A program made the position numbers and the translations under genes. The notes beneath the pieces are model-generated. The model was not told where the DNA came from. It searched no databases and worked only from the letters and a program-made list of their open reading frames with translations. From an uncultured Lachnospiraceae bacterium (GTDB taxonomy: Bacteria > Bacillota > Clostridia > Lachnospirales > Lachnospiraceae): DNA of 64,000 nucleotides. The stretch is from positions 1-64,000 of the forward strand of contig CANRLR010000005.1 of assembly GCA_947631505.1 (NCBI GenBank), read 5' to 3'. Shown here in pieces: positions 19,868 through 48,071 of this stretch. Every line of letters begins with the position of its first letter. The stretch's first letter is position 1.

Positions 19868-21295
19868 TTAAAAATTTTGTCCCCCATACCTGTGCCTCAC
19901 AGCCTTTTCTAAATCTGTTACCATTTTTAAATAGTTTTTTTTCTGATTTTTTATATACGTATTATGTGCCTCAAAATAATCAATCAACCATTTATCTAAG
20001 TCGATATCATTTTCGCAGGCATACGCTATCAGGGCAATGAGTGACACTCTATTCGACTTATCCAGCAGCTTTGTATGATCGTTTACCTCTAGTGTTAGAT
20101 CCTCCAGCATATCACAATAAAAATCAATATCTTCCTGTGTCGTATCTTTCTTTACGTTTTCCCTGACAAAGTCCAAGAAATCCATTTCTTCACACTCCTC
20201 CTGTCTGATTCCGATAAATTCATACATAAATTCTTCCAGCAGCTGTAATTTTTCAACTATACAGCTTTTTTTCTTTGTGCTTACTTGATTCATCTCATCA
20301 AATGATGTTCCATTCCATTTCTTTTTATGAAGAGCTGTTTGAAATGTTTCCATAAATTCAATAAATCTACTGGACGATAGACCGGTTTTGCAAAACTTAT
20401 GATAGGTCACGAACCATAAAAATGAATTTTTAGAATTGAACATCTCTGAAACGCAATCGGTCATTACCTCTGATATCGAATCCAGTTCCATTTTAAAATC
20501 AATAATCATATCCTCTTCCATATGTTCATTCAGATAAGTACATATATCTTTTAAGGGACTTTTCCAGTCGCACAAAAAATAGGTTGCCATAATACTTTCC
20601 AATACAACTCGGTTCAGCGTGTCATTATTTCTTTCTGCTGGTTTAAAATTCCCCAGATCTTTAAAAAAAGGATGAGTTGCTGTAATATTTTTAACCTGCA
20701 TCGCTATCTTTTTGTCTAAATATGTAATACCGTTTTGGCTTGCCCCCATCTTTTTGGCATGATTATATCTTCGTAAGTGATACCCGATTTGATTATCGGA
20801 ACAATTCAAATGTTTTACTTCCATAAGTTGATATTCATCAAATATTTCTCTCAGTTCTTCTGGTAGATCCCGATACCCTTTTCCTCGAATATCACAAACT
20901 ACGGTGTCATGCACCAAATTTCCCTCTTCATCCCGCACTGGTTTCCCATTTTCATCTAATCGGTTTACTTGATATTCAATCAATGGTTCCTCCACTTTAT
21001 TTCCTAATTTAAAGGCACCCACCCTGTAATTGAAAATCGTGGTTATTCTTTGTATCCCATCAATAATATAATTGTCCACTCCCTTTTTTGTCACCTGCTC
21101 ACAAAGTACAATATAGGGAATATCTTCATTTTTTAAAACTGTTCCAATCAGACCGTCACGATATTCCGATGTCCATTGACCTGATTCCCTCTGCTGAGGA
21201 TGGTCGGTTCTCACGGTCTCTTTCTTTACTGCATTTACATAATATTTCGTAGAGTGAAAATCTCTTTTTGTTTTTTCCATTCCAATTTGCTGCAT
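19868..21295 (-). CDS. DUF262 (GmrSD/ParB-like) domain protein
   Basis: 475 aa. The N-terminal DUF262 domain (about residues 20-200) has the nucleotide-binding motif YIIDGIQRITTIFNYR (DGIQR in place of the usual DGQQR) and RGKGYRDLPEELREIF. The C-terminal half is helical with no HNH nuclease (DUF1524) motif visible. DUF262 proteins bind and hydrolyse NTPs and occur in GmrSD restriction enzymes and many phage-defence or regulatory genes. It is 15 bases behind the sigma-factor gene and shares its SOS promoter, so a regulatory or particle-release role for the tail element is more likely than restriction (inference). Confidence 0.7.
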   Translation of the reverse strand: MQQIGMEKTKRDFHSTKYYVNAVKKETVRTDHPQQRESGQWTSEYRDGLIGTVLKNEDIPYIVLCEQVTKKGVDNYIIDGIQRITTIFNYRVGAFKLGNKVEEPLIEYQVNRLDENGKPVRDEEGNLVHDTVVCDIRGKGYRDLPEELREIFDEYQLMEVKHLNCSDNQIGYHLRRYNHAKKMGASQNGITYLDKKIAMQVKNITATHPFFKDLGNFKPAERNNDTLNRVVLESIMATYFLCDWKSPLKDICTYLNEHMEEDMIIDFKMELDSISEVMTDCVSEMFNSKNSFLWFVTYHKFCKTGLSSSRFIEFMETFQTALHKKKWNGTSFDEMNQVSTKKKSCIVEKLQLLEEFMYEFIGIRQEECEEMDFLDFVRENVKKDTTQEDIDFYCDMLEDLTLEVNDHTKLLDKSNRVSLIALIAYACENDIDLDKWLIDYFEAHNTYIKNQKKNYLKMVTDLEKAVRHRYGGQNF

Positions 21296-21310
21296 TGATA
21301 CCCCTCCTTT

Positions 21311-21871
21311 TTAAATATGTAATAATCGAATATGCTCATACTGAGTAATCTGCCTCATGTGGAATGAGTATTGTTTATCGGTAAGTTTCAATTTCTTTTT
21401 TATCGTGAATACTTCTATATTCTGCATTTTCATTTCTATAATTTTTCTTTGTATCTGGGAAAGACTGTCTAAATATCCTTCCATTTTTTCATTTTTTGAC
21501 TCTGCCATTCCTTCTAAAACCTCTTTTTCAATATCGATATTAGAAGCAATTTTATCTGCTAATGTTATACCATCATTGTCACTCATGGGCATATCAATGG
21601 GCACCGTCATTCGTTCTGCTTTCCGCTTATAGCGGTTCCTTCGCGTCATTTCTGTTTTTACTTTATTGAAAAGACACAAATACAAAAATGGTGCAAAGGA
21701 CTGTTCCCTATTATATCTTCTCATGACATCTACAAATACCTCATTTGCCAAAGAATAAAAATCATCTCTATCCTTTTCCGATATGCCTCCAAATTTTAAT
21801 AGCAGCTTATCCACTATTCCATGAAGTTTTTTTGCATTATCTGAATAATACTCCAATAAAATCTGTTCCAA
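21311..21871 (-). CDS. SOS-controlled alternative sigma factor
   Basis: 186 aa. Sigma region 2 is seen at about residues 30-85 (DRDDFYSLANEVFVDVMRRY, PFLYLCLFNKVKTEMTRRN) and region 4 at about 135-180 (LSQIQRKIIEMKMQN, TIKKKLKLTDKQYSF). Size and domain plan match the TcdR/UviA/BotR group, in which UviA is an SOS-inducible sigma factor driving bacteriocin genes in Clostridium perfringens. TTG start at 21869-21871 with GGGGGA 6 bases upstream. The promoter carries two LexA boxes. I infer that it switches on the divergent tail operon. Confidence 0.75.
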   Translation of the reverse strand: MEQILLEYYSDNAKKLHGIVDKLLLKFGGISEKDRDDFYSLANEVFVDVMRRYNREQSFAPFLYLCLFNKVKTEMTRRNRYKRKAERMTVPIDMPMSDNDGITLADKIASNIDIEKEVLEGMAESKNEKMEGYLDSLSQIQRKIIEMKMQNIEVFTIKKKLKLTDKQYSFHMRQITQYEHIRLLHI

Positions 21872-21923
21872 TACGAATCCCCCATTTCATTTGTATACAA
21901 TATTCTTCTTGTCTTGCAACACA

Positions 21924-21961: not shown

Positions 21962-21975
21962 CGAACGTTTGTTCG
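21962..21975. promoter_or_regulatory. LexA (SOS) box 2, upstream of -35
   Basis: CGAACGTTTGTTCG is a full Firmicutes LexA box (CGAAC-N4-GTTCG), centred 32-33 bases from box 1, about three helical turns, so two dimers would bind the same DNA face. Confidence 0.8.
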
Positions 21976-22108: not shown

Positions 22109-22456
22109 TTATCGACGAGCATATTGATTGTTTTTTAACGTACTTTTTAATGCTCTTATCAGCACCAGAATCATATTCATTTCGCTCTCGGTACAAGAAT
22201 TGATTTCCTGTATCAAAACATTCTTTATCTCAAAATTTTCTGACATTTCAGGATAAAATAACTGATACAGCGGCAGATCTAGTTCTTTGACTAATCGGCA
22301 CAATATTTGGAACTTAGGATTGCCTGCATTATTCTCAATATCAATGATTGTCCTTTTGCATACCTTAACTCTGTCTGCTAATATCTCCTGCGATAAGTTT
22401 TTACTTTTTCTTGCTTTGCGTACAACTCTTCCTAATGTTTTTACTGATTGGTTCAT
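22109..22456 (-). CDS. XRE-family helix-turn-helix regulator
   Basis: 115 aa from MNQSVKTLGR. The N-terminal HTH is clear (LGRVVRKARKSKNLSQEILA, VKVCKRTIIDIENNAGNPK); the C-terminal 45 residues are helical. GAGGTG lies 6 bases before ATG 22456. It sits between the sigma operon and the divergent polymerase-tail operon, the usual place for a phage-type repressor or a late-gene switch. The region 21976-22108 downstream holds only a repeated GTTGCACT and no gene. Confidence 0.85.
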   Translation of the reverse strand: MNQSVKTLGRVVRKARKSKNLSQEILADRVKVCKRTIIDIENNAGNPKFQILCRLVKELDLPLYQLFYPEMSENFEIKNVLIQEINSCTESEMNMILVLIRALKSTLKNNQYARR

Positions 22457-22625
22457 TTTTTTCACCTCATTTTTAAAATCAACACAATTAACACAACTAC
22501 AATTCACCATTTTACGAGTTTTTTCTCACTTTTTCGATTTTATCGCTAATGTAGCAAAAATCTTTGATAATGTCGTGTTTTTAAATCATACAACAGCGAA
22601 AAATGTCTCTCCTTCCAAAAGGGTA

Positions 22626-22694: not shown

Positions 22695-22907
22695 ATGACA
22701 GCACAAAAGTTTACCACAAAAACATATCAGACCGATCATTCTACCTTTGGCGGAAAAATTTACGACTATGATTACAACGGAAAGACCTCAATGTGTGATA
22801 TTGCTTCTCGGATTGAATCAGACTGGAAATTTGATAAGAAATGCAGACACTCTTTTGAAAGGAGGAATCAGCATGGAACAGAACGACATTTACATACCAT
22901 CCATTGA
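22695..22907 (+). CDS. Small ORF overlapping the polymerase start
   Basis: 70 aa, MTAQKFTTKTYQTDHSTFGG onward. AAAGGAGG lies 11-12 bases before the ATG. It overlaps the polymerase start (22873) by 35 bases in another frame, so it could be a leader gene that couples translation. No family is recognised; the C-terminal part read in the overlap (ERRNQHGTERH) looks unlike a selected sequence. Confidence 0.45.
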   Translation: MTAQKFTTKTYQTDHSTFGGKIYDYDYNGKTSMCDIASRIESDWKFDKKCRHSFERRNQHGTERHLHTIH

Positions 22908-25659
22908 TGCAAAGGATATTTATCTGGCATCCCATTATATTCACGACAATCCTGACGGGTATCATTTAAAACTGAAAGATGGACAGTATAATTTGCACAA
23001 ATTCGTGAACAGTCTGGATTTTAGCTTGGATTTAGTTGAATTAATAGATATCTATCACAAAATATACAGGCGAAAAGATTTTACGTTTAAGAGGAAGAAA
23101 CATTCCTATACAGCAAATGTCATAAACCTTACCTTCAAATATTCAGTAAAGGAATGGAACCAAATGAACAGAAACACCTTTGTAAAATTTGGATATGATG
23201 CTAAAAGCCTTACATTTACTGACTGTATCGCTAAGAACAGTTGTGGGGAAATTGTTGGTATACGAGTAGGAGAGAGGGTTCTCTCTCCCGTAGAAGAACT
23301 TCCTGACTATTTTTGTATCAAAGAAAAACAGTATCAAAAGAAAAAAGAACCTAAAACAAAGAAAACCAGTGCTGAACTGCGTAGAGAGCTATACACAAAC
23401 GGTTTTGTCTGTGACGGAAACCACTATTGCAGAATGAAACGCTCCTCTGGCTCTGCCCGCGTTGGTAAATGTTTGTTCATTCGTAAAGAATTATTTCAGC
23501 CTCTCCTAAAATTTAGTTCAGGAAATATATCCCTTCAAAAAGGTCAGCAGGTAGACTTAGCTGCTTATGAAAGCTATATATCTCTTCCCTCCAGCAGTAT
23601 TATTGATACGATAACGATATCTCCTGAAAACATTTTGCTGATTGATGATTACAATAGCATATTTCGGGAAGATGTGATTGAAACACATAATGAAAAGGGA
23701 TGGCTCACCACATCGGAAAAAAATTGCGAAATTTCAAACAACATCTGGGATGGCCAATCCCTTATTGATATATCACTTCTAGGCAGCTATTCCTGCTATG
23801 GTATGGTTCTTCTGCGAAATTTGATGTTTAAATCATGCTGTTTTAATTGTAATATCCAGCAATGGTTCAAAGACAACCACATTACCGATATATCACAATT
23901 AAATGGAAAAACATGGGCAAAACGAATTGAAGATGTCAAGCTGATTACTACCCCGAGCAGTATCAAGTACCTGAAGTTCGATTCTCTGGACAATTGGCTC
24001 CGCCATATTTACCCCCATTTCGGAGTCGTAAAGCATGTTAAGAAAACTCCTTTTTTCGGAGGAAAGCTGGTACAGACCCATTATCAGCTCATTAATACGT
24101 TACAGCTTTCTAAGGAAGAAATGAAGGAATTTTTACAAGAATCCTTAGATTTTGCACAACAACTGAGAGACAATCCTGCTGTTGTCCGATATTATATTAA
24201 ATATCCTGACATTGACAAGCTTGAGCCTCTGTCAAAACCTATGTTAAATAAAACGGATGTTGTCTACAACTTGATGTGTATCAATGATAATTTTACAAAA
24301 ACAAAATACTATCAGTCCTTTTTACACGATTTACTTGCTTCCTATTATAAGAATCTCAAAAATGGTCATGTATATGTAAACGGCAACTACTCCACACTTC
24401 TCGGAAACCCAATCGAAATGCTGCAGCAGGCAATTGGACAATTTCAAGGAGAAAGTCAGATTGGCGTTGGCAATATTCATAACATACGATTTGAGTATAA
24501 CAAGACACTACTTGGCTCGAGAAGTCCTCATGTCACAATGGGGAATCTATGGTTAGCCACCAATCAGGAAAACAAATTAATTGACCATTATTTCAATCTG
24601 ACCGAGGAGATCGTCTGTATTAATTCAATCGGCGAAAATATTCTGCAACGGCTTTCCGGGGCAGATTTTGACAGTGACACGGTACTATTGACTGATAATC
24701 CCATTTTAATCAAAGCTGCCAAACGGAATTATCAACAATTTAAAACGCCAACTTCCTTTGTATCAGCAAAACGAATAACCCGATATTATACACCTGAGGA
24801 ACAAGCAGATCTGGATATACGAACATCCGTAAATAAAATCGGAGAAATTATCAATTTATCCCAAGAACTGAATTCTCTTTTATGGGATAAATTGTATGCT
24901 GGAAGTTCCTATGAGGATATAAAGGAACTGTATTATGATATCTGCCAATTAGATGTCATGTCTGGTATTGAGATTGACAAGGCAAAAAAAGAATTTGACA
25001 TTGACAACGGAAAAGAACTGAATAAAATGCGGGAAAAGTATAAGCATGAGCTTATTGATGATTACGGCAGAAAGAAAACACCACATTTTTTCTCCCATAT
25101 TTCAAAGCAGAAGGGATATTATAATCCAGAAAAGAAAAATTATTGTAAATACAACACTTCCATGGATTATCTACAGACCATTGTAAATGGATTCCGAATC
25201 CGAAATCCATACAAAAAGGACTGGCTTCCATTTGCTGCTATATTAAATAAATCCAAATTCCGCACCTCAGATGTAAATCAAAAACAGATTAATCGTATAT
25301 ACGGCATCTTGAAAAAATATGTCAGTGGAAGAAAGAATATTTTTCAATCAGAAATGGAAAAGGAAGATAAACAGACAAAGCATCATTTACTATATGAAAA
25401 TTTACTTACCGATATCGAAGAAGAATCGATTGGCTTCTCGACTCTTTTCCGATTATTGAGTTCTTTAGAATCCAAAGAAAATACGGCGATAAAAAACATC
25501 CTGTTACAGGTTCTGTATTTAGGGAGAAACAAAAGCTTTCATAAAGCAATTATAAACTCATCTTCTGTTCTGGAACAATTAGAACCAGACGGTGACGATA
25601 TTAAGCTTTTTCATTTGGGCTTTAAAATCACAAAAAAAAGAATAAATTCCGAAATCTGA
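22873..25659 (+). CDS. Single-chain DNA-dependent RNA polymerase of the YonO / RNAi-polymerase type
   Basis: 928 aa from ATG 22873 (AAAGGAGG, 7 bases upstream). The catalytic double-psi barrel motif is LSGADFDSDTVLL, with metal-binding Asp 598, 600 and 602, the equivalent of NADFDGD in cellular beta-prime with Gly replaced by Ser. Ahead of it GSRSPHVTMGN (about 548) corresponds to the R-N/S-P motif, and RMKRSSGSARVGKCLFI (about 187-203) resembles the first-barrel motif of RNAi polymerases (SSSQLREHxxWF). SPbeta YonO, a one-subunit polymerase that transcribes phage late genes, has the same plan and is also followed by an HU-like gene (yonN). I infer that it transcribes the tail genes downstream. 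Confidence 0.8.
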   Translation: MEQNDIYIPSIDAKDIYLASHYIHDNPDGYHLKLKDGQYNLHKFVNSLDFSLDLVELIDIYHKIYRRKDFTFKRKKHSYTANVINLTFKYSVKEWNQMNRNTFVKFGYDAKSLTFTDCIAKNSCGEIVGIRVGERVLSPVEELPDYFCIKEKQYQKKKEPKTKKTSAELRRELYTNGFVCDGNHYCRMKRSSGSARVGKCLFIRKELFQPLLKFSSGNISLQKGQQVDLAAYESYISLPSSSIIDTITISPENILLIDDYNSIFREDVIETHNEKGWLTTSEKNCEISNNIWDGQSLIDISLLGSYSCYGMVLLRNLMFKSCCFNCNIQQWFKDNHITDISQLNGKTWAKRIEDVKLITTPSSIKYLKFDSLDNWLRHIYPHFGVVKHVKKTPFFGGKLVQTHYQLINTLQLSKEEMKEFLQESLDFAQQLRDNPAVVRYYIKYPDIDKLEPLSKPMLNKTDVVYNLMCINDNFTKTKYYQSFLHDLLASYYKNLKNGHVYVNGNYSTLLGNPIEMLQQAIGQFQGESQIGVGNIHNIRFEYNKTLLGSRSPHVTMGNLWLATNQENKLIDHYFNLTEEIVCINSIGENILQRLSGADFDSDTVLLTDNPILIKAAKRNYQQFKTPTSFVSAKRITRYYTPEEQADLDIRTSVNKIGEIINLSQELNSLLWDKLYAGSSYEDIKELYYDICQLDVMSGIEIDKAKKEFDIDNGKELNKMREKYKHELIDDYGRKKTPHFFSHISKQKGYYNPEKKNYCKYNTSMDYLQTIVNGFRIRNPYKKDWLPFAAILNKSKFRTSDVNQKQINRIYGILKKYVSGRKNIFQSEMEKEDKQTKHHLLYENLLTDIEEESIGFSTLFRLLSSLESKENTAIKNILLQVLYLGRNKSFHKAIINSSSVLEQLEPDGDDIKLFHLGFKITKKRINSEI

Positions 25660-25733
25660 AATCCATTTCACCACTCATATGAACGCGTTATTTATTCTGC
25701 TTAGGAAAGGGAAAGGAGGTTTTGCTATACAAG

Positions 25734-26054
25734 ATGAAATATAATCAAAAAGATGTTATTTCTGAAATACACAAAAGAACCGGCTGCTCAACAAGTGAGA
25801 TTTCCACCATTCTGAATACGTTAGGTGATGTAGTAAAGCATAAGCTCAGCAATGACAGCCATTATGTTGAAATTAAATTATTCCCGGGACTAAAAATAAC
25901 AGCAGACTACATTTCACCAGAGCAATCCAAATCGAATCTCCCCCTTTCCCAATTCGGTTTTGTGTTACGCTTACATGCTGATTTAAGCGACTATTTCAAA
26001 AAAGAAGTCAGAAATCTGCATCATGCGATTGAAAACAACCTTCAGTCAGGCTGA
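25734..26054 (+). CDS. HU/IHF-like DNA-binding protein (YonN-like)
   Basis: 106 aa. KYNQKDVISEIHKRTGCSTS, then STILNTLGDVVKHKLSND and EIKLFPGLKITADYI follow the HU fold (two helices then the beta arm), with a longer C-terminal tail. The ATG 25734 lies 14 bases after GGAGG; a TTG at 25722 is closer but only 2 bases from it, so the exact start is open. In SPbeta the yonO polymerase gene is likewise paired with an HU-like gene. It may organise the promoter DNA for the polymerase. Confidence 0.75.
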   Translation: MKYNQKDVISEIHKRTGCSTSEISTILNTLGDVVKHKLSNDSHYVEIKLFPGLKITADYISPEQSKSNLPLSQFGFVLRLHADLSDYFKKEVRNLHHAIENNLQSG

Positions 26055-26151
26055 AAAATCATTACATTCCTTTTTTCTACAGGTGGCGGTGCTTTTGTTC
26101 TGAAAGTATGGTCACCTGTTTTCTTATATAGAAAGAGTCAGGAGGTGAAAT

Positions 26152-26676
26152 GTGTCTAATTTGTATTATGCTGCTCTATACAAAAATAAGATTATCGATC
26201 TTCTGCTTCGCAGCAAAAATCTTATTCCATTAATCAATCCGTCTGAAAACATATATCATCATATCTTTGATTATGATTTTACGGATGATTCCACAGCGGA
26301 GCAAAAAACTTTTATTATTGTTGACACGGACATCGATACCGTAAAAAACAACATATACACGGATTATAATCTTTATATCTATATTTTTACAGCAAAAGAA
26401 TTAGTCCAATTAACAATTGATACTTCTCCTACTGTGGATGAAGTAAAAAATATGGGATACTTTGCAGGTCAAAATGCAAACCGCATTGATATATTATGTG
26501 CGATTGTTGATGAAATTTTAAACGGCACAGATGAAATGGAAGGAATCGGAACGGTAGAGCCCGCTCCATCGGGATATATTACATCCTATAAACCGAATAA
26601 AAATTATTATGGAAAATGCTTAAAGTATCATATTTCTAATCTCAATATGAGTGGAGATACGAATGGAAATCAGTAA
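26152..26676 (+). CDS. Unknown phage-type protein, first tail-region gene (tail completion candidate)
   Basis: 174 aa from a GTG with GGAGG 6 bases upstream. It has an acidic alpha/beta composition with TFIIVDTDIDTVKNN and a gpXX-like NRIDILCAIVDEILNG. I do not recognise a characterised family; position before the tube gene and size fit a tail terminator or completion protein. It overlaps the next gene by 14 bases. Confidence 0.55.
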   Translation: MSNLYYAALYKNKIIDLLLRSKNLIPLINPSENIYHHIFDYDFTDDSTAEQKTFIIVDTDIDTVKNNIYTDYNLYIYIFTAKELVQLTIDTSPTVDEVKNMGYFAGQNANRIDILCAIVDEILNGTDEMEGIGTVEPAPSGYITSYKPNKNYYGKCLKYHISNLNMSGDTNGNQ

Positions 26677-27436
26677 ACAAGCTCTTTTTCCATACTTAAT
26701 TTTTAATAAGGAAGTAATATATAACGAAGCAATCTCCCTGCATCCGATTCAGATGAAAAATATCATTGAATTCCAGCAATACGAAAAAGCTCTGACACTA
26801 CGTAAGGATTCCATCTTTCAAGAAAAGGAATTTATTAAAATGGACTACTTAGATTTTATTAAATATTCTTTTCGCAATAAAAAGCTGTCCGACCACTACC
26901 ATATTCCGCTTTTGCCATTCTATTTTGATTTTATCATCCAGATTCTTCAACTGGCATGCGGAGAGGATACAAAAATACAATATAGCACTTCCTCTCTTGC
27001 CTTTTCGATTAATGGTTTTGAAATAACAAATTCTGTATTTGATGATTTAAGAAAAATTATTATTATCCAGAATGATATTGATTTTAATATGGACGAATTT
27101 GTAAATATTGACACCATTCAGGCATTGGAAAAAGCAAGAGAATTTGAAGCAAAAAAAAGCAAGGAAAAGTCAGATATTGAAGACTATATTGATTCTCTCA
27201 TTATTGAAATGAAGGTCTCAGAAGAATTTGTTTCCAATCTAACAATAAGAAAGTTCTGGAGATATATTAATCGAATTAATAAACATGATGAGTACAATGC
27301 ATGTCGTTCTGGTCAAATGAGCGGAATGGTTACATTCAAAGAACCAATTAAACATTGGATGACAAGTATTGAAGTAACCGACAAATATGAGAACCTCAAA
27401 ACAGATGAGGGCGAATTAAGAAGTAAAATAGAATAG
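26663..27436 (+). CDS. Unknown phage-type protein (possible tail chaperone/adaptor)
   Basis: 257 aa from MEISKQALFPYL; GTGGAG 6 bases upstream decides this ATG over GTG 26651. Mixed helical protein with an EAKKSKEKSDIEDYIDSLII helical stretch and a conserved-looking C terminus (QMSGMVTFKEPIKHWMTS). From memory such proteins occur uncharacterised in Clostridia siphophages ahead of the major tail protein. No catalytic motif is visible. Confidence 0.5.
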   Translation: MEISKQALFPYLIFNKEVIYNEAISLHPIQMKNIIEFQQYEKALTLRKDSIFQEKEFIKMDYLDFIKYSFRNKKLSDHYHIPLLPFYFDFIIQILQLACGEDTKIQYSTSSLAFSINGFEITNSVFDDLRKIIIIQNDIDFNMDEFVNIDTIQALEKAREFEAKKSKEKSDIEDYIDSLIIEMKVSEEFVSNLTIRKFWRYINRINKHDEYNACRSGQMSGMVTFKEPIKHWMTSIEVTDKYENLKTDEGELRSKIE

Positions 27437-27495: not shown

Positions 27496-28497
27496 ATGAA
27501 AAATACTGTAAATAATTATTCAAAGGACTTTTTGGTATCAACGGCTGATGTAGCATTTTTTGTCAATGATGTATTGGCTTTTACTGGTACTACTTCATTA
27601 AACACTTCTATTTCTGTTTCCATGGAAGATCAGGAGATTACAGGCGGTAAAGGAAATAAAACCCTTTACAAATTCAAATATGGCAGAAAATTAGCTCCTT
27701 CGATTGAAATGGCACAGTGGAATCTGGCATATATCGCTGCCAATGTCGGCTCTACTATTTTTGAGGGCTTAAAGGATGTATTTGTAGTAGCAGAACCGGT
27801 AACTCTGACAAAAGGTATCGGAACTTTAAAAAGAGAACCGGTCGGAAAAGTATTTGTTGAATACTCGGATGGTTCCACTGAAGAAATCGCACCAGCTGGT
27901 TCTACAATTACAGTCGGTGACGCAGATGGCAAGATATTGGCTACCTATCAGTATAGTACAAACGTAAAAAGAGTAACCGTAGACGCCGAATCTACACCAT
28001 TTGTCGGTCGTCTGGTTATGAGTGCTGATAAGCACAATAACAGAAAAGGTAAGGTGGGAGAAGTACAGATTGAAGTACCTTCCTTCCAGTTAAATGGTAC
28101 CTTTGATATTACTCTCGAAGCCAGCGGAAACACAACAACCAAGCTGGAGGGTGATGCTTTGGCAGTTGATGATGATTCTTGTACAGACGGCTCTGTTTAC
28201 GCTTATATTACCGAGATTCCGTCTGAAGACTCTGCTGTTGCCGTATCAGATCTGGCAGTAACACCTAGTGTTATTACCCTTGCCGTCAATGAGACAAAAC
28301 CTCTTAATGTCATCGGTATCCGAGGCGGATTGTACAGTAATGTCAGCATTGATATTGCAGAATGTGAGATTACTTCCAGTGATTCCTCTGTTGCTTCTGT
28401 GGAAAACGGAATTGTTACCGCTGTAAGCACGGGTACAGCATATATCAGCGTAGTTCATAACGACGTTGAAGATGTTGTTAAGGTCATTATTTCTTAA
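27496..28497 (+). CDS. Probable major tail tube protein with C-terminal BIG2 Ig-like domain
   Basis: 333 aa. A beta-rich N-terminal domain (to about 240) is followed by a bacterial Ig-like (BIG2) domain (about 247-333: VTPSVITLAVNETKPLNV, then SSDSSVASVENGIVTAVSTG). Many siphophage tube proteins carry such a decoration, e.g. lambda gpV. It is followed by an 11-bp hairpin, as often seen behind genes needed in large amounts. Assignment as the tube protein rests on context and domain plan. Confidence 0.65.
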   Translation: MKNTVNNYSKDFLVSTADVAFFVNDVLAFTGTTSLNTSISVSMEDQEITGGKGNKTLYKFKYGRKLAPSIEMAQWNLAYIAANVGSTIFEGLKDVFVVAEPVTLTKGIGTLKREPVGKVFVEYSDGSTEEIAPAGSTITVGDADGKILATYQYSTNVKRVTVDAESTPFVGRLVMSADKHNNRKGKVGEVQIEVPSFQLNGTFDITLEASGNTTTKLEGDALAVDDDSCTDGSVYAYITEIPSEDSAVAVSDLAVTPSVITLAVNETKPLNVIGIRGGLYSNVSIDIAECEITSSDSSVASVENGIVTAVSTGTAYISVVHNDVEDVVKVIIS

Positions 28498-28526
28498 GTA
28501 AAGCGGTGTGATAATCCGATGTTCTG

Positions 28527-28560
28527 GGAGAGTGGCATTTATACTGCCACTCTCCTATAT
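28527..28560 (+). terminator. Hairpin behind the tail tube gene
   Basis: GGAGAGTGGCA pairs with TGCCACTCTCC, 11 bp, loop of 7, followed by TATATTGTATT. The weak U-run suggests partial termination or mRNA stabilisation, setting high tube output relative to downstream genes. Confidence 0.55.
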
Positions 28561-28639
28561 TGTATTAACTGATGTCCACGGATTGCTCCATTGCTTCGCA
28601 ATTCCCGCAATCCTGCAAACATTAGAAATGGGGACTATT

Positions 28640-29485: not shown

Positions 29486-29496
29486 GGGATAAAATA

Positions 29497-29871: not shown

Positions 29872-29893
29872 AAAAAGAAAGGAGGTATGAGAA

Positions 29894-31415: not shown

Positions 31416-31428
31416 AAGCAAAAGAAAA

Positions 31429-38710: not shown

Positions 38711-41700
38711 TTGGCAATCCCATTTAAGAAATACGGATACTCAATGAATCCGATTACGGATGAGATAAAAACACCTCAGGTATTTCTTGTAAATAAACAA
38801 CTAAAAAAAATTGGTGAGTTATATCCGATTGAAAATCTTTCTGTTAGCATTCATGAAGTCAATCAACCGGATGAAGTCAGTTTTACTTATTATAAAGAAA
38901 CTAACGATAGAAAATCTCCCTATTTTGACCAATTCGATGATTTATCGGTGATTCAGGTCGGTGATTTTGGATTTTTTGAGTGTTCTATCAGTAAAAATCA
39001 GAACACTTCCATTGTTAAATCAGTAACCGCCCAGTCTCTTGGATACTCAGAACTATCCCAGATTTTACATACATTAGAAGTAAATACCGATGATGATATG
39101 AATCGTGGTGATTATAATGAAGAATATCCTACCGTGTTCTACCGGAATATTCCGATTGATTCCGATGAGGAACAAGCAAAGAAATTAAAGGAATCCTCTC
39201 TCTTGCATCGTATTCTGACCGCTGCACCGCATTATAAAATCGGAGATGTGTCACCTACGCTGAAATATGTTCAGCGCACTTTTTCATGGAGCGACAGGGA
39301 TATTATAAGTATCCTGCATGACATTGAACAAGAAGTTACCTGCATTTTCGATATACAAGTACGGATTGGTGAGGACGGAAATGTAGAACGTATCATCAAC
39401 GCTTACGATATGCAATACTGCGAAAGATGCTGGAAGGAAGCACAAAAATCAGGGACAACAGCCACTTCCAATACTTCCACATTCCGTAACATCATAAACG
39501 GTATATGTCAGAATTGTAATGAATCTGCACATGTTGTGGATATTGGCTGCGAAAGCGGAATTTATATTTCTACTGACAATCTCTCGGATGATATTTCCAT
39601 ATGCGGTGACAAAGACTCCATTAAAAACTGTTTCAGGATTACCGGAGGGGATGACCTCATGACCAATACGGTACAGGGACTTAACCTATCTGCCTCCGGC
39701 AAGATTATGGCATTTTCGGACTTTCAGAAAAAAATGATGAGCAAGGAATTAATTGCGAAGCTGGAACAGTATGCCGATGATTATAATACTAATATTGGAT
39801 CTTATGAAAAACTTCTTGAAACAGAATACAATGCGTATGACATACGTTTATACCTGCAGAGCGGTAAAATGCCGGATATTGAAAAGGAAATCAAAACGAC
39901 AGACGAAGCATTATACTTTGTACTTGATCATATTTATAAGTATTTTAATAACCAATTCTATATAAGTTCTTATGATAATTATTATAAATATCCGTCTTCT
40001 TCTGCAAAGACTTCTATTTCTAATCTGTTCACTACGTTCATGCCGGAGGGATTCTCTATGACGATTGATAAGTCAGATAATGAGGATGATATACCAGAGA
40101 AAGATTATGATTCAAATCATATCTATCGCTGGTATGGGACAATTAAGTTTTATAATACCGGCAACCGGGATGATTCTTATACACTCCATATTACAAAGAG
40201 TGAAGGAACATATATCACAAGCGGCACATCAACAGAAAAATATCTATCTGGTGATACGGCAGAACAAAATTTAGTTGACAATTTTATCGTACAGTTTTAT
40301 TTTGCTGACCAATCACAACAAGAGTACAAAAAGTATATAGAACAGTATTCGGCTTATCTATTGTCTACTGTTGATTTATCTTATGAAAATGAGAGGAAAA
40401 AGGAATGGGAAAAATACGGATACAATCTCTTAAAATCTTATGCTGACGGATATCAGAAATGTATTGAGACAATTGATGATCTGCTTCGGACTACAGAGAA
40501 AGATTCTGAACAATATACAATCCTAATGGACACACGAAGCAACTATGTTGAAATACAGAATGATATTCTTTTACAGATGAATGTACTGGAAGACCAGATT
40601 TTTGCTGTCTGTAGTTATCTCGGCGGTGATTATGATGACGACTATCTAAATGATAAAGGTGAAATTTCATATAGCTTCAAATATTATAAAGGAGAAAACA
40701 AAGCAAGTATACAAGAAATCTTTGAACATATGATAAGTTCAGTCTATGCAGGTGGATATGATACGAACCAGACAGTATACACCCCCAATGAATTTATTGG
40801 AACAAAACCATGTCTTTGTCTGAAGTGCAACAGTACCAATGTCGCTGTCAGCGCAGAAGGAAATATTTGCAGGAATCCGGGATGTGGTGCTGCAGGAGAT
40901 GATATTTACACCTATTGCGATATCATGAAGAACATTTCTGATAGTTATGAACAACATGAAGGACAGACTCTTGTTAAGTTAAGAAGTCAATATCAGGACA
41001 AGTTTGAAACAAGAACTTATTTTGGTGATACGTTATATACCGAACTTCTCTCACATATCAGAGAGGATATCTATGACAATAGCAATTTTACTTCGGATAG
41101 ATTAAGCAACGCACAGATTATCCAACAGGCAAAGGAACTGAAAGCAAAAGCAGAACAGGAATTGGCAAAGGCTTGTACACCACAGTACGAGATTACAACA
41201 CCTCTCTCTTCTATTGTCGCACAAAAGAGTTTTATGTATCAAGGAATTTTGGTCAATGATGACTATTCACAGTTTAAAATCAACAACTATGTGCGTGTTA
41301 AAATTGATAATGATTTGTACAAAATGCGGATTACTTCGATAAATCTTCAATTTCCTGTTACGGATAAGATTGATGTTACTTTCAGCAATGTTACAAACTG
41401 CAAGACCAATACGGCAATGAGTGTAAAAGAGATTCTTGATCATGCATCCAGTATGGCAACCTCATATGATTATGTGGCAGCACAGGCAGATAAGGGAGCC
41501 GTTGCAAATGACCAGTTCGTACAGATCAAAAACGAAGGTCTAAATGCTTCTCTTATGAATGTGATAAACAGCCGTGACCAAGATGTTGTCATTGATAGTC
41601 ATGGTATTTTGTTACGAAAAAAGATACCGGAAACCGGTGAATATTCCCAATATCAGACAAAATTGATTGACCGGAATATTGTCATGACGGATGACAATTG

Positions 41701-43504
41701 GAATACACCTAAACTGGCAATCGGACTTGGGATGTATAATGGAGCATTACAGTATGGTGTATGGGCAGACGTTATTTGTGGTGATCTGTTAGCGGGGAAT
41801 CAATTAAAAATTTACGGTGGTGGAGATGGAACAGCGGATAATGCTACTGTAATAATAGATGGGAAAGGGATCACGCTTGATGGTGGTGCGATTACTTGGA
41901 TAAATAAAGGCGTTACCGATACAATAGAGGTTTATTATGCTGTATCTTCCAGTAATACAACACACCCGGCAGAGTCAAGCACTGAATGGAACAAAATATT
42001 TACTGGCACACTGAATAACAATTATCTGTGGAGCAAAACAGTTGCTATAGATACTGTTGGGAAAAAAACTATCACATACAATTGTTTGGGTAATTCACCA
42101 GATGGCATTAAAACAACCAAAAAGCAATACTATCTGTCAATATCAGAAACATCTGCGACTGGTGGTTCTTGGACAGATTATCAACCAACATGGGCTGGCA
42201 GCGGTTATGTATGGACAAGAACATATATTGAATACATCTCTGGAAAAACAGAAATTGTAGGTCTGGTATATGATAGTGGATTAACAAAGTCTCTGCGTGA
42301 TTTTTCCACGTTTAAATCAAATGTAGATACAGCACTGGGGAAAAGTATACCTACTACTGAAATTGGTTCTGATTATGTTATTTCGCCTAAAATTGGTGGC
42401 GGGTATTTATATATAGCAAGTGGAGATTATTCAGTGGAAATTGACCCTAATCATAAAGCCGGTAATAATACACTTGATAACTGGTTATTTGTTATTAGAA
42501 ATAAAAATGTTAATGGCAATGATTCTGTTGTCATGGGTGTTAATACAGATGGGGATGGATATTTTAACGGTGAAATTTATTCTACCAGTGGAAATTTTGG
42601 TGGATGGCAAATTGATAATGGACGGATATATAGTACAGACAAGAGCAAAAAACTTTCAACAATTCTTTATGCAGAAGGAAGATTGTATATTAATTCAGAA
42701 GTAACTGATATAGTAAAAGAGGGTTCAATATATATACAAAACAAAAAATTGGGTAGCTATTTGAATATTAGCTCTTCGTTGATTACACTAGATGATGATT
42801 ATACATATAGCGGAGACACTTCCTTGTTAGATATAAGTATAAACAATCCAACCACAAATTCACCACGTTTTTATATAAATAGTAGGATGAAAACATATAT
42901 TGGTAATTGTGAACATCTTAATATGTCAGGGGAAATAACCTTGCCAAATAATAATTATATCAGAACATATAAACCTGGCAGTTCTAATAAAACAGCACTA
43001 ATTGGCTGGTCTAATGGCGATAATATATGGATTGGCTATTGGAATAATTCCCCGGTCTATGCACCGAATTCTATATATCTTAATGCAAGAAATATATACT
43101 ATACTGGAAATGCTCCTCATGCAACTTCATCTGATAAACGTATAAAATCGGATATTGATTATATAGAAAAGGCAAAAGAATTTATTTTAAATCTTGAACC
43201 TAAACAATATAAATTAGCTGATAGTACAAGTAATCGTAAGCATATGGGATTTATTGCTCAAGATGTAGAAAAGGTAATGCTAAAAACGATTGGTGATACT
43301 GGTCTTGTTGTAAAACAAACTTTTAATGAGGATGTTCCGATTAATTTTGATGATGACAACACGTACACCTACGCTCTTAGATATGAAGAATTTATTGCTC
43401 CCATAGTTGCAACGATACAAAGTCAACATATCGATATTAATGAACTTAAAGAAATTGTTGCTAATCAAACAAATATAATAAATAAATTGAAAAATAAAAT
43501 ATAA
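38711..43504 (+). CDS. Tail-associated baseplate hub / receptor-binding protein (Tal type) with C-terminal S74 chaperone
   Basis: 1597 aa from TTG 38711. The N-terminal about 400 residues are Tal-like hub (TPQVFLVNKQLKKIGELYPI, QRTFSWSDRDIISILHDIE). Two zinc-ribbon-like inserts are present: Cys 237/240 with 266/269, and Cys 703/706 with 720/725. The middle is beta-rich. The C terminus is an intramolecular chaperone: SSDKRIKSDI with Ser1474 and Lys1479 as the autocleavage pair, then HMGFIAQDVEKV and YEEFIAPIVATIQSQ. Self-cleavage would release about 124 residues after trimerisation. Confidence 0.8.
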   Translation: MAIPFKKYGYSMNPITDEIKTPQVFLVNKQLKKIGELYPIENLSVSIHEVNQPDEVSFTYYKETNDRKSPYFDQFDDLSVIQVGDFGFFECSISKNQNTSIVKSVTAQSLGYSELSQILHTLEVNTDDDMNRGDYNEEYPTVFYRNIPIDSDEEQAKKLKESSLLHRILTAAPHYKIGDVSPTLKYVQRTFSWSDRDIISILHDIEQEVTCIFDIQVRIGEDGNVERIINAYDMQYCERCWKEAQKSGTTATSNTSTFRNIINGICQNCNESAHVVDIGCESGIYISTDNLSDDISICGDKDSIKNCFRITGGDDLMTNTVQGLNLSASGKIMAFSDFQKKMMSKELIAKLEQYADDYNTNIGSYEKLLETEYNAYDIRLYLQSGKMPDIEKEIKTTDEALYFVLDHIYKYFNNQFYISSYDNYYKYPSSSAKTSISNLFTTFMPEGFSMTIDKSDNEDDIPEKDYDSNHIYRWYGTIKFYNTGNRDDSYTLHITKSEGTYITSGTSTEKYLSGDTAEQNLVDNFIVQFYFADQSQQEYKKYIEQYSAYLLSTVDLSYENERKKEWEKYGYNLLKSYADGYQKCIETIDDLLRTTEKDSEQYTILMDTRSNYVEIQNDILLQMNVLEDQIFAVCSYLGGDYDDDYLNDKGEISYSFKYYKGENKASIQEIFEHMISSVYAGGYDTNQTVYTPNEFIGTKPCLCLKCNSTNVAVSAEGNICRNPGCGAAGDDIYTYCDIMKNISDSYEQHEGQTLVKLRSQYQDKFETRTYFGDTLYTELLSHIREDIYDNSNFTSDRLSNAQIIQQAKELKAKAEQELAKACTPQYEITTPLSSIVAQKSFMYQGILVNDDYSQFKINNYVRVKIDNDLYKMRITSINLQFPVTDKIDVTFSNVTNCKTNTAMSVKEILDHASSMATSYDYVAAQADKGAVANDQFVQIKNEGLNASLMNVINSRDQDVVIDSHGILLRKKIPETGEYSQYQTKLIDRNIVMTDDNWNTPKLAIGLGMYNGALQYGVWADVICGDLLAGNQLKIYGGGDGTADNATVIIDGKGITLDGGAITWINKGVTDTIEVYYAVSSSNTTHPAESSTEWNKIFTGTLNNNYLWSKTVAIDTVGKKTITYNCLGNSPDGIKTTKKQYYLSISETSATGGSWTDYQPTWAGSGYVWTRTYIEYISGKTEIVGLVYDSGLTKSLRDFSTFKSNVDTALGKSIPTTEIGSDYVISPKIGGGYLYIASGDYSVEIDPNHKAGNNTLDNWLFVIRNKNVNGNDSVVMGVNTDGDGYFNGEIYSTSGNFGGWQIDNGRIYSTDKSKKLSTILYAEGRLYINSEVTDIVKEGSIYIQNKKLGSYLNISSSLITLDDDYTYSGDTSLLDISINNPTTNSPRFYINSRMKTYIGNCEHLNMSGEITLPNNNYIRTYKPGSSNKTALIGWSNGDNIWIGYWNNSPVYAPNSIYLNARNIYYTGNAPHATSSDKRIKSDIDYIEKAKEFILNLEPKQYKLADSTSNRKHMGFIAQDVEKVMLKTIGDTGLVVKQTFNEDVPINFDDDNTYTYALRYEEFIAPIVATIQSQHIDINELKEIVANQTNIINKLKNKI

Positions 43505-43560: not shown

Positions 43561-46500
43561 GTGATTAAAATTAATCCTATAAATCACAATATACAATTAA
43601 ACCTTGGTTCGTCCGATGTCAAACGAACCGTAATTAAGCAAAATTCAAACAAAACCCATATTCTTCAGATAAAATTATATGACCAAAATAATGAAATAGA
43701 CATTCATTCAAATTGGAGTATTCATATATCCGCTTTAAAAGGCGATCACACACATGTTATCAATACCAATAATATCTCTGTCGCGAATAATACAATTGAA
43801 GTGATAATGACAAAACAAATGCTGGCGGCACCGGGAACAGAAAAATGCGAGTTAATCATACAAGAGGATGATAAAATATTATTTTCTGATACATTTTTTA
43901 TCTATGTAGAGCCAAATGTGCAGGACGGTACCTTTATCGAAAGCAGCAACGAATATGATTCAATTGTTGATACACTAAATCATGTCAAAGGAAAAAAAGA
44001 ACAAGTGGATCAAATGACAGAAGAAATTGAAGGAACAAAAGTTGACATCAATAATACTTATGAAGAATTAAAAGATGCTGTTGTAGAAACAAATGATTTA
44101 ATCGAGAAAAATCAAGTCATTAAGACAAATGAAGAAGCAAGAATCGCAGCAGAAAATACTCGTAGTAAAAATGAAGAAAAACGTCAGAAAGATACTGCTG
44201 CTGCTATTTCAAATGCAGAAAATGCAACAAAAAGAGCAAATGATGCAACGGATGATTTACAGAATAAGCTAGATTCTCATTATTTTATTTTAACAGAAGA
44301 TAAAAATGTAGCTGGCGGTGTACTAAGTCTTGATTCAAACACCAAAGTATCTAATACAGAATTATATGAGGCTACCATCTCAAACAAAGGTATTACACAA
44401 TTAACGGATAGCATCACAAGTACATCTACTACTACCGCAGCAACTCCAAATAGTGTAAAAACTTCTTATGACAAAGCTGTCTCTGTCGAAAATGACATGA
44501 ATGCTAACAAAGAAATTTGGAATGATAAATATACAAGAAATGAAATAGATAATAAATTTTCAACATTAGAAACCAATATTGACTGGAAAGAATCTGTTGA
44601 AACATTTGATGACATTGCCACTACTTATCCAGATCCTAAAGACGGATGGACGGTCAACGTCAAAGACACGGATTACACCTATCGTTATAATGGTACAGAA
44701 TGGGTTACTATCTCTGCAAATGCCATTCCGAAAGCAACCAATCGTATCGATGGCTTATTAAGTAAAGAAGACCATGAAAAATATGAGGATTCTAATAACA
44801 AAAAGCATACGCATGATAACAAATCTGTTATTGACAAGATTTCTCAAACCCTATTTGATGCCTGGAATACTGCTTATGAACATATAACGGATACCGTTAA
44901 ACATATTACAGGACAGGAACGCAATAACTGGGACTCAGCATATACTCATTCGCAATCTGCACATGCACCAAGTAATGCAGAGGCAAACCAAAATGCTTTC
45001 AGCAACGTTGTGGTAGACTCTGCCACTATTTCAGCAGATAATGCCACTGATACCTTAACTCTTGCAGCTGGTTCAAACGTGACATTGACTCCTGATTCAA
45101 CAAGTGGAAAAATTACTATTTCCTCCAATGAAAATTCATCATTGAGCACAAATAATGTAGAGGTTGGTTTAAATAAATTAACTTATTTCTTATCAACTGG
45201 AAATCAAAATCCGTCTTATATTGTTACAGAAAGTGCTGAGGATACAATGTATATAAATGGCCGGGGAGCTCAGAGAACCAGTTCGGAAAAGGCATTGTTT
45301 GTAAAAGTTAATAGTGCTAGTGGTTATTGTGGATATGCCCTTGTCGGACTTACTTCTGACAGTGTTGGAACAAAATCGCTGACTGATTATGGAAATACAA
45401 TCTTAAAGAGCAGAACAACTCCTTCCGGAATAACATATTATATATCGCAAATGGCTAACCTTTGGTCTGGCGGTGGAAGCTCTGGTGGAGAACTTCCTGT
45501 AAATGCAACTGTTTCTGGTAAATCTTTTAATATTGTCAAAGCAATGTATAATTTATATCCGGGGCAGGAAAATTCTGCATTAGCATTAGATGTATTAGTT
45601 GATATTGTTCTGGTATCAGGATATTCAATCGAAACTGAGTTCAATGGTAATGCTTCTACTGCAACAGCACTTTATTTATGCCCTATAGATAACACATCCA
45701 TTACAGATTTCAATAATTTCACAGATGGAATATGGAAAATAGATAGAAATTCAGCGATGACACATTCACCAACAGGAAACAGTACAGAGCATGGATATCT
45801 GATTCAGCATTCAAATACGGTTAGTAATATGAAAATGGTAAGTCAGATTTTTATACAAGCTGACGCTTGTTCTATATACACAAGAAATTGTTGGTATGAT
45901 ACATGGAAAGATTGGGTAATGTGTTTAGATACCAAAAACTATTCTAAGCTTGCACTGCCTTTAAGTGGAGGGACAGTTACAGGAACTCTTACTCTATCAA
46001 AAGCAACAGATTTATCTGGTACTGCAAATAATTCTCCTGCACTTATTGTAGGTGGAAACGCTGCCACAGAACATATAGAAATGGATTCAAATGAAATTCA
46101 GGCAAAAGCAAGTGGTACAGCAGTATCTCCTCTTTATCTTAATAATGACGGTGGAATTGTCCAAGTAGGTGGTGGCGGTTTGAGAGCCTTAGGACATATA
46201 TATACAATGTACGATAATGCTAATTGTGCAATACAGGCTGGAAGTAAAATAGCTATGTGGACAGACAATGAAGGCGGAAATATACAAATGACACGACATG
46301 ACAATGCAGGATTTTGGCAGATAGATACACAATCAGGAGATCTTAGAGTATATTATCATGATAATAGTACAAATAGTAATTATTTTCCATTTTACTTAAA
46401 TTCTAAGAAGCTCACTACTAACGATTTAAATGTTAGTAGTGACTTAACTGTTGCAAATTCTGCTAGAATCGCTAAGGCAAGTGGTGATGCAAATTATCAA

Positions 46501-47118
46501 TTCAATATTGGGACTGCGGCAAATAAGACATCGTCATATCCACAATTACTGCTTCGCCAGTATTCAAATGTGTTTCAGTTTTTTCCAAGTAAAAGTTTTG
46601 CAAATGATATAGGTGTTCATATTGGTCACAGTGCTTACCGGTTCGGGGATGCTTACTTTACTAATGTTTATAATTCGTCTGGTGTGATTACAACATCAGA
46701 CAGGAACAAAAAACATGACATTGAGGACATGCAGTCGGATATTATTGAGAAAATAATTGACGGTCTGTTACCAAAATCCTTCAAATTCAATGATGGTTCA
46801 AGCGGAAGAACGCACTATGGAATCATAGCACAGGAACTCGAGGAACTGCTTGTTGAACTTGGAATTGACGCTGATTCATTCGCACCTTTAGTAAAAGAAT
46901 ATCCGGATAAATCAGTAAAAGTTGGCGAAGACGATGAAGGCAAAGCAATCTATGAATTACAAAAAGATTATGACGCAGAACCAACCTACAATGTTAGATA
47001 CGAAGAGTTTATCATGATACTTGTAAAGTATTGTCAAGATATCAAAAAGAGAAATTTAAAAATTCAAGAAAATTTAAATAACATAGAAAAACGATTAGAA
47101 TTATTAGAAAAAGCATAA
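43561..47118 (+). CDS. BppU-like upper baseplate/fibre protein with C-terminal S74 chaperone
   Basis: 1185 aa from GTG 43561 (the ribosome site AAAGGA is unusually close). The first 120 residues are BppU-N like ([40 protein letters not shown]), followed by a coiled-coil stalk (about 140-240), repeats of fibre type, and a C-terminal S74 domain ([14 protein letters not shown], Ser1046/Lys1051; [31 protein letters not shown]). It probably carries the host-binding tip. Self-cleavage would release about 140 residues. Confidence 0.8.
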
Positions 47119-47174
47119 GAAAAATCATTAATCTGGTTGTTCGTTTTTATAAACAAAAGAAAGAAGGATAACAA

Positions 47175-48071
47175 ATGAAAAAAGTATATGCAAGTACAAT
47201 TGTAAATCTAGCCAAAAAGGAAGTTGGAACAGTAGAAAAAAACTCCAATGATGTTAAATACAATACTTGGTATTATGGTCATTCCGTTAATGATAAGAAT
47301 AAAGGTGGATGTGTCTATCCATGGTGTATGGCATTTATAAGCTGGCTATTTAATCAATCGGATGCATTAAATCTTATAGGCGGGAAAAGTGCTTCCTGCT
47401 CGCAAACAATTAATTGGTTCCAAAAACACAAGCAATGGTATACATCAAATCCCCAGATTGGTGATTTAGTATTCTTTACATACAGCCATGTTGGATTAGT
47501 CATTGCCGTGAATGGTAAAACAATCACAACGATTGAAGGAAATACATCAAGTAATGATAGTGGCTCACAAAGAAACGGTGGAATGGTTGCGAAAAGAACC
47601 AGAACATCTAACATCAAAGGATATGGCAGACCTCAATATGATAAAAAACCTAGTACAGAAATTTCTACAAAGTGTCGTTTGTACAAGAAAGCCAATATTG
47701 TGTCTGGAAGCTATGGTAATTTACCAGTTGGCAAAGAAATCAACTATATAAAGGATTGTAATAATGGGTGGAGTAATGTGAGAACTACTATCAATAACAG
47801 CACATATAATGGATTTGTAAAAAATAGCTGTATCAGAGGCAGGACCAATTTATCGAAATATAGAACAGGAACCATTAATGTTAAAACTGCACCACTTCAT
47901 AAAAAGAATAAAAAAGCTTCTAAGATATTAGTAAAAGTGCCAAAAAATACAAAGGTCAAAGTGATTTCAATCGGAAAATTCTGGAGCAATGTAAAAGTTT
48001 CTGTTGATAATAAAAAATATGATGGTTTTATTTGGAATAAGAAAATAGAAAATGCAGGAAAAGGGACTTGA
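47175..48071 (+). CDS. CHAP-domain endolysin with SH3-like cell-wall binding repeats
   Basis: 298 aa. The CHAP amidase/endopeptidase domain occupies about residues 5-150 with catalytic Cys51 (VYPWCMAFISW) and His105 (YSHVGLVIAV). Two SH3-like repeats follow (about 160-225 and 228-292). No signal peptide, so release needs a holin. AAGGA precedes ATG 47175. The last seven codons and stop lie inside the antisense tRNA-Leu gene, the right limit of the element. Confidence 0.88.
   Translation: MKKVYASTIVNLAKKEVGTVEKNSNDVKYNTWYYGHSVNDKNKGGCVYPWCMAFISWLFNQSDALNLIGGKSASCSQTINWFQKHKQWYTSNPQIGDLVFFTYSHVGLVIAVNGKTITTIEGNTSSNDSGSQRNGGMVAKRTRTSNIKGYGRPQYDKKPSTEISTKCRLYKKANIVSGSYGNLPVGKEINYIKDCNNGWSNVRTTINNSTYNGFVKNSCIRGRTNLSKYRTGTINVKTAPLHKKNKKASKILVKVPKNTKVKVISIGKFWSNVKVSVDNKKYDGFIWNKKIENAGKGT

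What the first reader, a model, noticed from the sequence alone, without database searches (positions are those of the whole stretch)
19868..48071. Headless, SOS-inducible flexible-tail element (F-type tailocin candidate) with its own RNA polymerase
Between two terminated chromosomal segments lies a 28-kb AT-rich block with all parts of a siphovirus tail (tube, tape measure, Dit, Tal, BppU, endolysin), a LexA-controlled sigma factor, an XRE regulator, and a YonO-like polymerase plus HU pair. I find no terminase, portal, protease, capsid, integrase or replication gene. Known F-type tailocins (R/F pyocins, Listeria monocins) do not carry a dedicated single-chain RNA polymerase. The pairing of a phage-type polymerase with a headless tail would be a new kind of bacteriocin-like or gene-regulated particle.
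Basis: partly seen in the sequence, partly recalled or inferred. Interest (0 to 1): 0.92.

Follow-up and report, generated by a model that had tools for sequence, protein, structure and literature searches.

The report
Headless phage tail with own polymerase
A gut bacterium carries a gene block, apparently switched on by DNA damage, that looks built to make phage tails without heads and brings its own virus-type RNA-copying enzyme; similar blocks occur in many related bacteria, giving a likely job to a polymerase whose role outside phages was unknown.

Summary

Of 89 polymerase loci, 31 are headless, 18 headed, 40 undecided. The classes interleave on the polymerase tree (AU p 5.6e-8 against one headless clade). 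A LexA box inside a near-consensus promoter precedes a sigma factor-DUF262 pair, seen at 16 of 31 headless and 0 of 18 headed loci. A conserved 24-nt motif behind the polymerase gene is a candidate promoter for it.

Best reading: an F-type tailocin-like particle made by an SOS, sigma, YonO-type polymerase cascade. Induction, killing and promoter are untested. The paper searches named found no tailocin with its own RNA polymerase. New variant of a known kind; it partly answers what chromosomal YonO-like polymerases do.

The parts
19868..21295 (-). DUF262/GmrSD_N-like gene, partner of the sigma factor; fused to it in L097, L098, L133, L140
   Evidence: PF03235 E 2.2e-6, below curated cut-off; fusions
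21311..21871 (-). sigma-70/ECF-like factor, 186 aa
21924..21952 (-). promoter of the sigma gene, TTGACA-N17-TATACT, with LexA box 21930-21941 in the spacer
21963..21974 (.). second exact LexA-type box
22109..22510 (-). XRE/HTH_3 regulator
   Evidence: PF01381 E 1.6e-8
22695..22907 (+). conserved small gene (70 aa) in front of the polymerase; matches at 11 further headless, 1 undecided and 2 headed loci of 89 upstream stretches
   Evidence: tblastn, E under 1e-3
22873..25659 (+). single-chain YonO-type RNA polymerase, 928 aa from the likely ATG; catalytic loop GADFDSD
25687..25710 (+). candidate promoter of the polymerase (late promoter), conserved 24-nt motif 28 nt after the polymerase stop
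25722..26054 (+). HU-like DNA-binding protein
   Evidence: PF00216 E 1e-4, just above cut-off
26055..26151 (.). 97-bp joint where headed relatives carry the terminase-portal-capsid part
26152..26676 (+). T174: first gene of the tail module; sequence homologue lies between capsid and tube genes in MT835469 and in the Robinsoniella prophage
26651..27436 (+). T261: tail-module gene; close kin in L140 and L148; at other loci the gene at this place belongs to other sequence groups that I seeded by position
27496..28497 (+). major tail (tube) protein with Ig-like domain
   Evidence: 30% to PMBT24 'major tail protein', E 2e-14
28508..28960 (+). hydrophobic protein, candidate holin (inferred, no profile match)
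   Evidence: sequence; relatives in L102, G250, G310
28964..30148 (+). three small tail-operon genes (28964-29485, 29482-29871, 29894-30148), function unknown; relatives of the first two at other headless loci
30684..31968 (-). two zinc-ribbon genes on the other strand (30684-31172, 31429-31968), moron-like; kin of the second also before the tape measure of the headed Robinsoniella prophage
32048..37219 (+). tape measure protein, 1723 aa
   Evidence: phrog_4211 E 2.1e-20
37617..37862 (+). 81-aa gene, unknown
37877..38710 (+). distal tail (Dit-like) protein
   Evidence: PF20195 E 5e-38
38711..43504 (+). Tal-like tail tip/fibre with S74 chaperone (Tal by place and kin, not by profile)
43561..47118 (+).
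47175..48071 (+). CHAP endolysin; last codons lie in tRNA-Leu antisense
48052..48137 (-). host tRNA-Leu(CAG), right border; prsA (18576-19751) is the left neighbour

Best explanation
It is a domesticated, headless siphovirus late operon: an F-type tailocin-like element. Proposed mechanism: (1) LexA sits on the operator inside the promoter of the sigma-DUF262 pair; DNA damage clears it (operator shown by sequence, control inferred). (2) The sigma factor, probably together with the adjacent or fused DUF262 protein, lets host RNA polymerase transcribe the small gene and the YonO-type polymerase (inferred; in compact relatives the LexA boxes also lie directly in front of the polymerase). (3) The single-chain polymerase starts at the motif 28 nt behind its own stop codon and transcribes HU, the tail genes and the endolysin as one run (inferred from YonO, from the place of the motif and from gene order). 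(4) Flexible tails with receptor-binding fibres assemble without heads, the cell lyses, and the tails bind and probably kill related bacteria (inferred from F-type tailocins). It descends from phages in which such a polymerase drives a late operon, by absence of the terminase-to-capsid part.
For: Late operons of headed relatives run polymerase - terminase - portal - capsid - tail (PMBT24 annotation; by sequence in MT835469 and the Robinsoniella prophage). In the window 97 bp separate HU from the first tail gene; first tail gene within 3.5 kb behind the polymerase at 31 of 31 headless loci and no head label in the stretch held at any. Searches for heads negative in the whole of G000. TerL profile hits G179 (part of the profile) and 4 of 5 virus records, and G255 weakly, but none of G152, G250, G310, G013, G247, G392, G339, G379, G349. 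LexA boxes: 18 of 28 headless against 1 of 18 headed; operator-in-promoter pattern 13 of 31 headless, 4 of 40 undecided, 0 of 18 headed; the 21930 12-mer recurs at uvrB, and recA has the same kind of box; a LexA-type S24 protein is encoded. Polymerase. Motif best or joint-best site at 20 of 24 loci tested. Purifying selection, e.g. tube protein dN/dS 0.11 (against L140), HU 0.15-0.25. YonO transcribes the SPbeta late genes as one operon after mitomycin C (PMC5467207, sections 7 and 8 read).
Against: No particle, induction or killing has been seen. The sigma assignment is below curated cut-offs and its model is weak (pLDDT 70). The motif was first picked by eye at this place, so leave-one-out is not fully independent; four more distant loci of the 24 lack it and L108 and L109 score low (13.7, 10.6 against 7.6, 7.8 elsewhere); in phages a strong hairpin follows it, so it could act in RNA. 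The operator pattern was also written after seeing examples. Of 31 headless loci 13 have no exact box, 15 no sigma gene and 9 neither in the stretch held (three of the nine have under 1 kb upstream). Portal and MCP profiles found nothing in one and two, respectively, of the four virus records in which TerL was found, so head searches are not fully sensitive. G131 holds a second, headed polymerase locus. Many headless loci are metagenome bins with short flanks; at six of 31 under 5 kb downstream is held.
Confidence: 0.76

Rival explanations
1. A decaying prophage remnant: an SPbeta-like phage integrated at tRNA-Leu, lost its head part and other modules, and has no present function.
For: Sits at a tRNA 3' end like a former integration site; no copy of 11 nt or more of the tRNA in 17-26 kb; no integrase in the block.
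Against: Reading frames open; dN below dS (0.11-0.39) wherever dS is measurable and pN below pS elsewhere; the same head-less layout, LexA promoter and sigma pair recur at other loci beside different host genes.
Confidence: 0.1
2. A satellite or helper-dependent element: it makes tails and borrows heads from a co-resident phage, so that DNA is packaged after all.
For: The polymerase is close to those of phages (80% to L034) and modules are exchanged with them.
Against: No replication, packaging or integration family in the block; no head genes found in the host genome; none of the 18 headed loci carries the sigma gene, though MT835469 and L032 carry a DUF262 gene alone.
Confidence: 0.05
3. A tail-like device used for something other than killing, for example phage exclusion, lysis for gene release, or contact with the animal host or protists.
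For: Killing is not shown; the fibres are poorly conserved between loci and do not name the target.
Against: SOS-type control, lysis gene and receptor-binding fibres match F-type tailocins (PMC7076858 and PMC10811719, passages read).
Confidence: 0.12

Closest known systems
Listeria monocin (ftb cluster) and other F-type tailocins (F-pyocin, rhizoviticin)
   Same: Flexible-tail genes with lysis genes, no head genes, SOS-linked; rhizoviticin also has a sigma-type gene in its regulatory region (PMC10811719, passages; PMC7076858, passages)
   Different: In PMC10811719 the term RNA polymerase occurs once, for that sigma factor; the monocin paper was not searched for it. Paper searches found no tailocin with its own polymerase. 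Here a YonO-type polymerase and a sigma-DUF262 pair behind a LexA operator
SPbeta prophage with YonO and the HU-type protein YonN
   Same: YonO-type polymerase next to a DNA-binding (HU-type) gene, transcribing a late operon after mitomycin C (PMC5467207; gene order)
   Different: SPbeta has terminase and integrase genes and forms plaques (PMC5467207); YonO is ~21% identical over 423 columns; no sigma gene annotated in the 45 kb seen
Enterocloster phage PMBT24, Robinsoniella peoriensis prophage (G179/L132), MT835469
   Same: Polymerase ahead of the late genes and the same tail order
   Different: Terminase, portal and capsid genes present between polymerase and tail; PMBT24 seen with an icosahedral head and long non-contractile tail (PMC11035940, abstract start in search listing)
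Diffocin (Clostridioides difficile)
   Same: SOS-induced phage tail bacteriocin of Clostridia (PMC6088184, abstract start in listing)
   Different: R-type, contractile

Membership tests
F-type tailocin | Siphovirus tail genes without head genes | tested here: met
F-type tailocin | Non-contractile tail (no sheath) | tested here: inconclusive
   no sheath family in Pfam/PHROG scans of the block; tube homologue of PMBT24; no electron microscopy
F-type tailocin | SOS-controlled production | tested here: inconclusive
   LexA-type operator in the promoter of the sigma gene; same boxes at recA and uvrB; induction not measured
F-type tailocin | Own lysis gene(s) | tested here: met
   CHAP endolysin (PF05257 E 1e-11); holin only inferred
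F-type tailocin | No working phage life cycle (integration, replication, packaging absent or broken) | tested here: met
   no such family found in the block; not strictly defining, as rhizoviticin keeps remnants
F-type tailocin | Bactericidal particle | not testable with these tools
   needs induction and a killing assay
YonO-type two-barrel RNA polymerase | Homology to YonO and to two-barrel polymerases | tested here: met
YonO-type two-barrel RNA polymerase | Catalytic aspartates DxDxD | tested here: met
   DFDSD; the three Asp (598, 600, 602) invariant in 52 aligned rows
YonO-type two-barrel RNA polymerase | DNA-dependent RNA synthesis | not testable with these tools
   biochemistry needed
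Complete temperate phage / SPbeta-like prophage | Head, packaging and integration genes | tested here: not met

The most novel reading that the evidence does not exclude
Chromosomal YonO-like polymerases of Lachnospiraceae are largely the dedicated engines of a widespread family of domesticated headless tails: SOS releases a sigma-DUF262 pair, which starts a private single-chain RNA polymerase that reads one promoter behind its own gene. Cells thus run a whole weapon operon on a non-host transcription system that can be swapped as a module with phages, and headless forms have arisen, or re-acquired polymerases, many times.
Probability: 0.6. Interest if true: 0.88.

Novelty: new variant of a known kind. 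Interest (0 to 1): 0.8.

Why it matters
Forrest et al. 2017 (PMC5467207, Discussion read) left open what YonO-like polymerases in bacterial chromosomes do, guessing at gene sets transcribed under stress. This locus and 30 with the same layout give a concrete answer for part of the Clostridia: SOS-linked headless tails. It also offers a candidate sequence for the promoter of this polymerase type, which that paper says remains to be determined, and suggests that F-type tailocins, called rare in PMC10811719 (passage), are common in Lachnospiraceae. Cultured carriers exist in the collection searched: Cuneatibacter sp. NSJ-177, bacterium 1XD42-54, and Murimonas intestini DSM 26524, whose record is however flagged UNVERIFIED_CONTAM.

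Tried and rejected

Rows dropped or set before counts: nine loci held twice (G and L copies) and loci whose polymerase piece was under 780 aa (for example G302, L107, L141, L142, L145, L165) are not among the 89; L032-L035 were set to 'headed' by hand because TerL lies in their records; 40 of 89 stay undecided. The T261 profile was seeded by position from sequence groups that do not match each other at E 1e-5, and the tube profile partly so; T174 and the window's tube were extended by sequence.
Full report
WHAT IS THERE. The window is the first 64 kb of contig C5 (130,863 bp) of a 2.74-Mb, 49-contig draft genome. Its family (f1) is shared with genomes whose contigs match named Lachnospiraceae in length and place (G250 = Murimonas intestini DSM 26524, G310 = Cuneatibacter sp. 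NSJ-177, G179 = Robinsoniella peoriensis). From 19,868 to 48,071 runs an AT-rich block; its genes are under parts. Pfam and PHROG profiles give tape measure, Dit-like DUF6558, fibre proteins with S74 chaperones, CHAP endolysin, HU, XRE and a DUF262/GmrSD_N-like protein. Same-genus genomes show the empty site: of 19 relatives whose prsA locus was fetched, 8 have tRNA-Leu(CAG) on the same strand within about 260 bp upstream of prsA, 3 have it upstream on the other strand, and 8 show no complete tRNA in the stretch held, several because the contig ends there. In the window the block lies between these two genes, and the endolysin frame runs into the 3' end of the tRNA gene.

WHERE THE HEADS WENT. 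Enterocloster phage PMBT24 is annotated polymerase, HU, terminase, portal, capsid, genes of 189 and 266 aa, major tail protein, tape measure, hubs, lysin; in the window genes of 174 and 261 aa stand at that place directly behind HU. For PMBT24 the match of those two genes is by place and size; the tube protein matches by sequence. In MT835469 and in the Robinsoniella prophage, sequence homologues of T174 and of the tube lie behind terminase, portal and capsid. So the block is the late operon of this phage kind without its terminase-to-capsid part. The rest of the genome shows no heads by four Pfam families or three lineage profiles. Those profiles do hit portal and capsid in G131, at a second, headed polymerase locus, and weakly terminase and portal in G255.

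HOW COMMON. 31 of 397 genomes of the family, the window's own included, have a polymerase relative. A scan of public genomes found 129 and returned the best, 78 distinct loci. Of 89 loci with a polymerase of at least 780 aa, 31 are headless by rule (a tail gene within 8 kb behind the polymerase and no head gene before it), 18 headed, 40 undecided. No head label occurs in the stretch held at any of the 31, but under 5 kb downstream is held at six, and G131 rests on tape-measure and zinc-ribbon matches alone. On the polymerase tree headed and headless rows interleave, at least 11 changes. In a tree of 21 chosen rows, holding the 12 headless together is rejected (AU p 5.6e-8), as is holding 5 phages together (p 1.5e-4; groups named after the first tree was seen). 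At T261 the window groups with L140 and L148 (tube proteins 65% and 73% alike), which are far from it on the polymerase tree, so polymerase and tail modules reassort. Neighbouring host genes differ between loci. Codons show constraint: dN/dS 0.11-0.39 where dS can be measured.

SWITCH. The only two perfect GAACN4GTTC boxes of the window lie before the sigma-like gene; one sits in the spacer of TTGACA-N17-TATACT. The same operator-promoter occurs at 13 of 31 headless, 4 of 40 undecided and 0 of 18 headed loci; exact boxes near the polymerase at 18 of 28 headless loci with 1 kb or more upstream held, at 7 of 33 such undecided loci and at 1 of 18 headed. Rows are related, so these are not independent draws; the pattern was written after seeing examples; and L035, L134 and PMBT24, all headed, have under 4.3 kb upstream held. 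As control, in this genome the same type of box precedes recA and uvrB (identical 12-mer at uvrB), and a one-mismatch box precedes lexA (these gene names are my reading of the sequence; the LexA-type domain is PF00717). Over the whole genome the bare box is not enriched. The sigma gene matches sigma factors by profile and weakly by fold. By phmmer it is at 16 of 31 headless and 0 of 18 headed loci; at all 22 distinct loci with it a DUF262 gene is adjacent or, at L097, L098, L133 and L140, fused to it. At the undecided compact loci L103 and L105 two boxes lie just in front of the polymerase, in the region shared with the divergent sigma gene.

A CANDIDATE PROMOTER. Behind the polymerase stop a 24-nt motif (form GAAATTTATTTTACATAGGAGAGG) is kept in headless and headed loci of the close clade. 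A weight matrix with the tested locus left out finds it as best or joint-best site of the whole stretch at 20 of 24 loci, between -7 and +40 nt of the stop, except L100 (+362, behind HU); L110, L130, L132 and L115, more distant, lack it. Seven of the 20 were not among the 13 seeds; two of these, L108 and L109, score low. In the window it scores 20.0, the next site 7.8, and no other match within 3 mismatches exists. In three phage loci a strong hairpin follows (z -4.6 to -5.3), not in the window (z -1.4), so a role in RNA is possible. That it is the polymerase's promoter is inference; PMC5467207 states that the YonO promoter sequence remains to be determined.

READING. Damage, LexA off, sigma-DUF262 on, polymerase on, tail and lysin operon on, headless tails out: the operator and the parts are read from sequence, the rest is inferred. 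The nearest known kind is the F-type tailocin (monocin, F-pyocin, rhizoviticin: passages of PMC7076858 and PMC10811719). Membership lacks the killing test. Paper searches combining tailocin with RNA polymerase and YonO, Lachnospiraceae, Clostridia or phage-encoded RNA polymerase, headless with Lachnospiraceae, and YonO-like with phage showed no report of such an element among the rows listed (some lists were cut, e.g. 20 of 71); the library holds open-licence papers and no preprints.

Noticed in passing
L113: 34 and 1947 nt after the polymerase stop: Two identical copies of the candidate promoter motif behind a polymerase gene split over three frames.
   Followed up: no
L031 (IMGVR_UViG_3300006213_002501, 13.6 kb): A contig filed as viral that has the headless layout with LexA promoter and sigma pair; probably a chromosomal element, not a virus.
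   Followed up: partly
L118, L147: YonO-type polymerase contigs in bins named WWE3 and Alistipes senegalensis; the tree places them among Clostridia sequences, so probably binning errors.
   Followed up: no
window 30684-31968: Zinc-ribbon genes lying against the tail operon before the tape measure; zinc-ribbon matches at 16 of 31 headless loci and in the headed Robinsoniella prophage.
   Followed up: partly
L175 (SPbeta), about 5735-5760 on the minus strand, behind yonN: A stretch GTTATGGAGGAAATTG resembles the clade motifs; whether it is the mapped YonO start is not tested.
   Followed up: no
downstream of polymerases in part of the undecided loci among the 87: A second stretch, GCGTAATAGGA-like, recurs behind the polymerase gene (seven-mers CGTAATA, GTAATAG); which clade carries it was not worked out.
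   Followed up: no
OQ326496, PQ571309, PQ571310: YonO-type polymerases annotated as RNA-dependent RNA polymerase in phage records.
   Followed up: no
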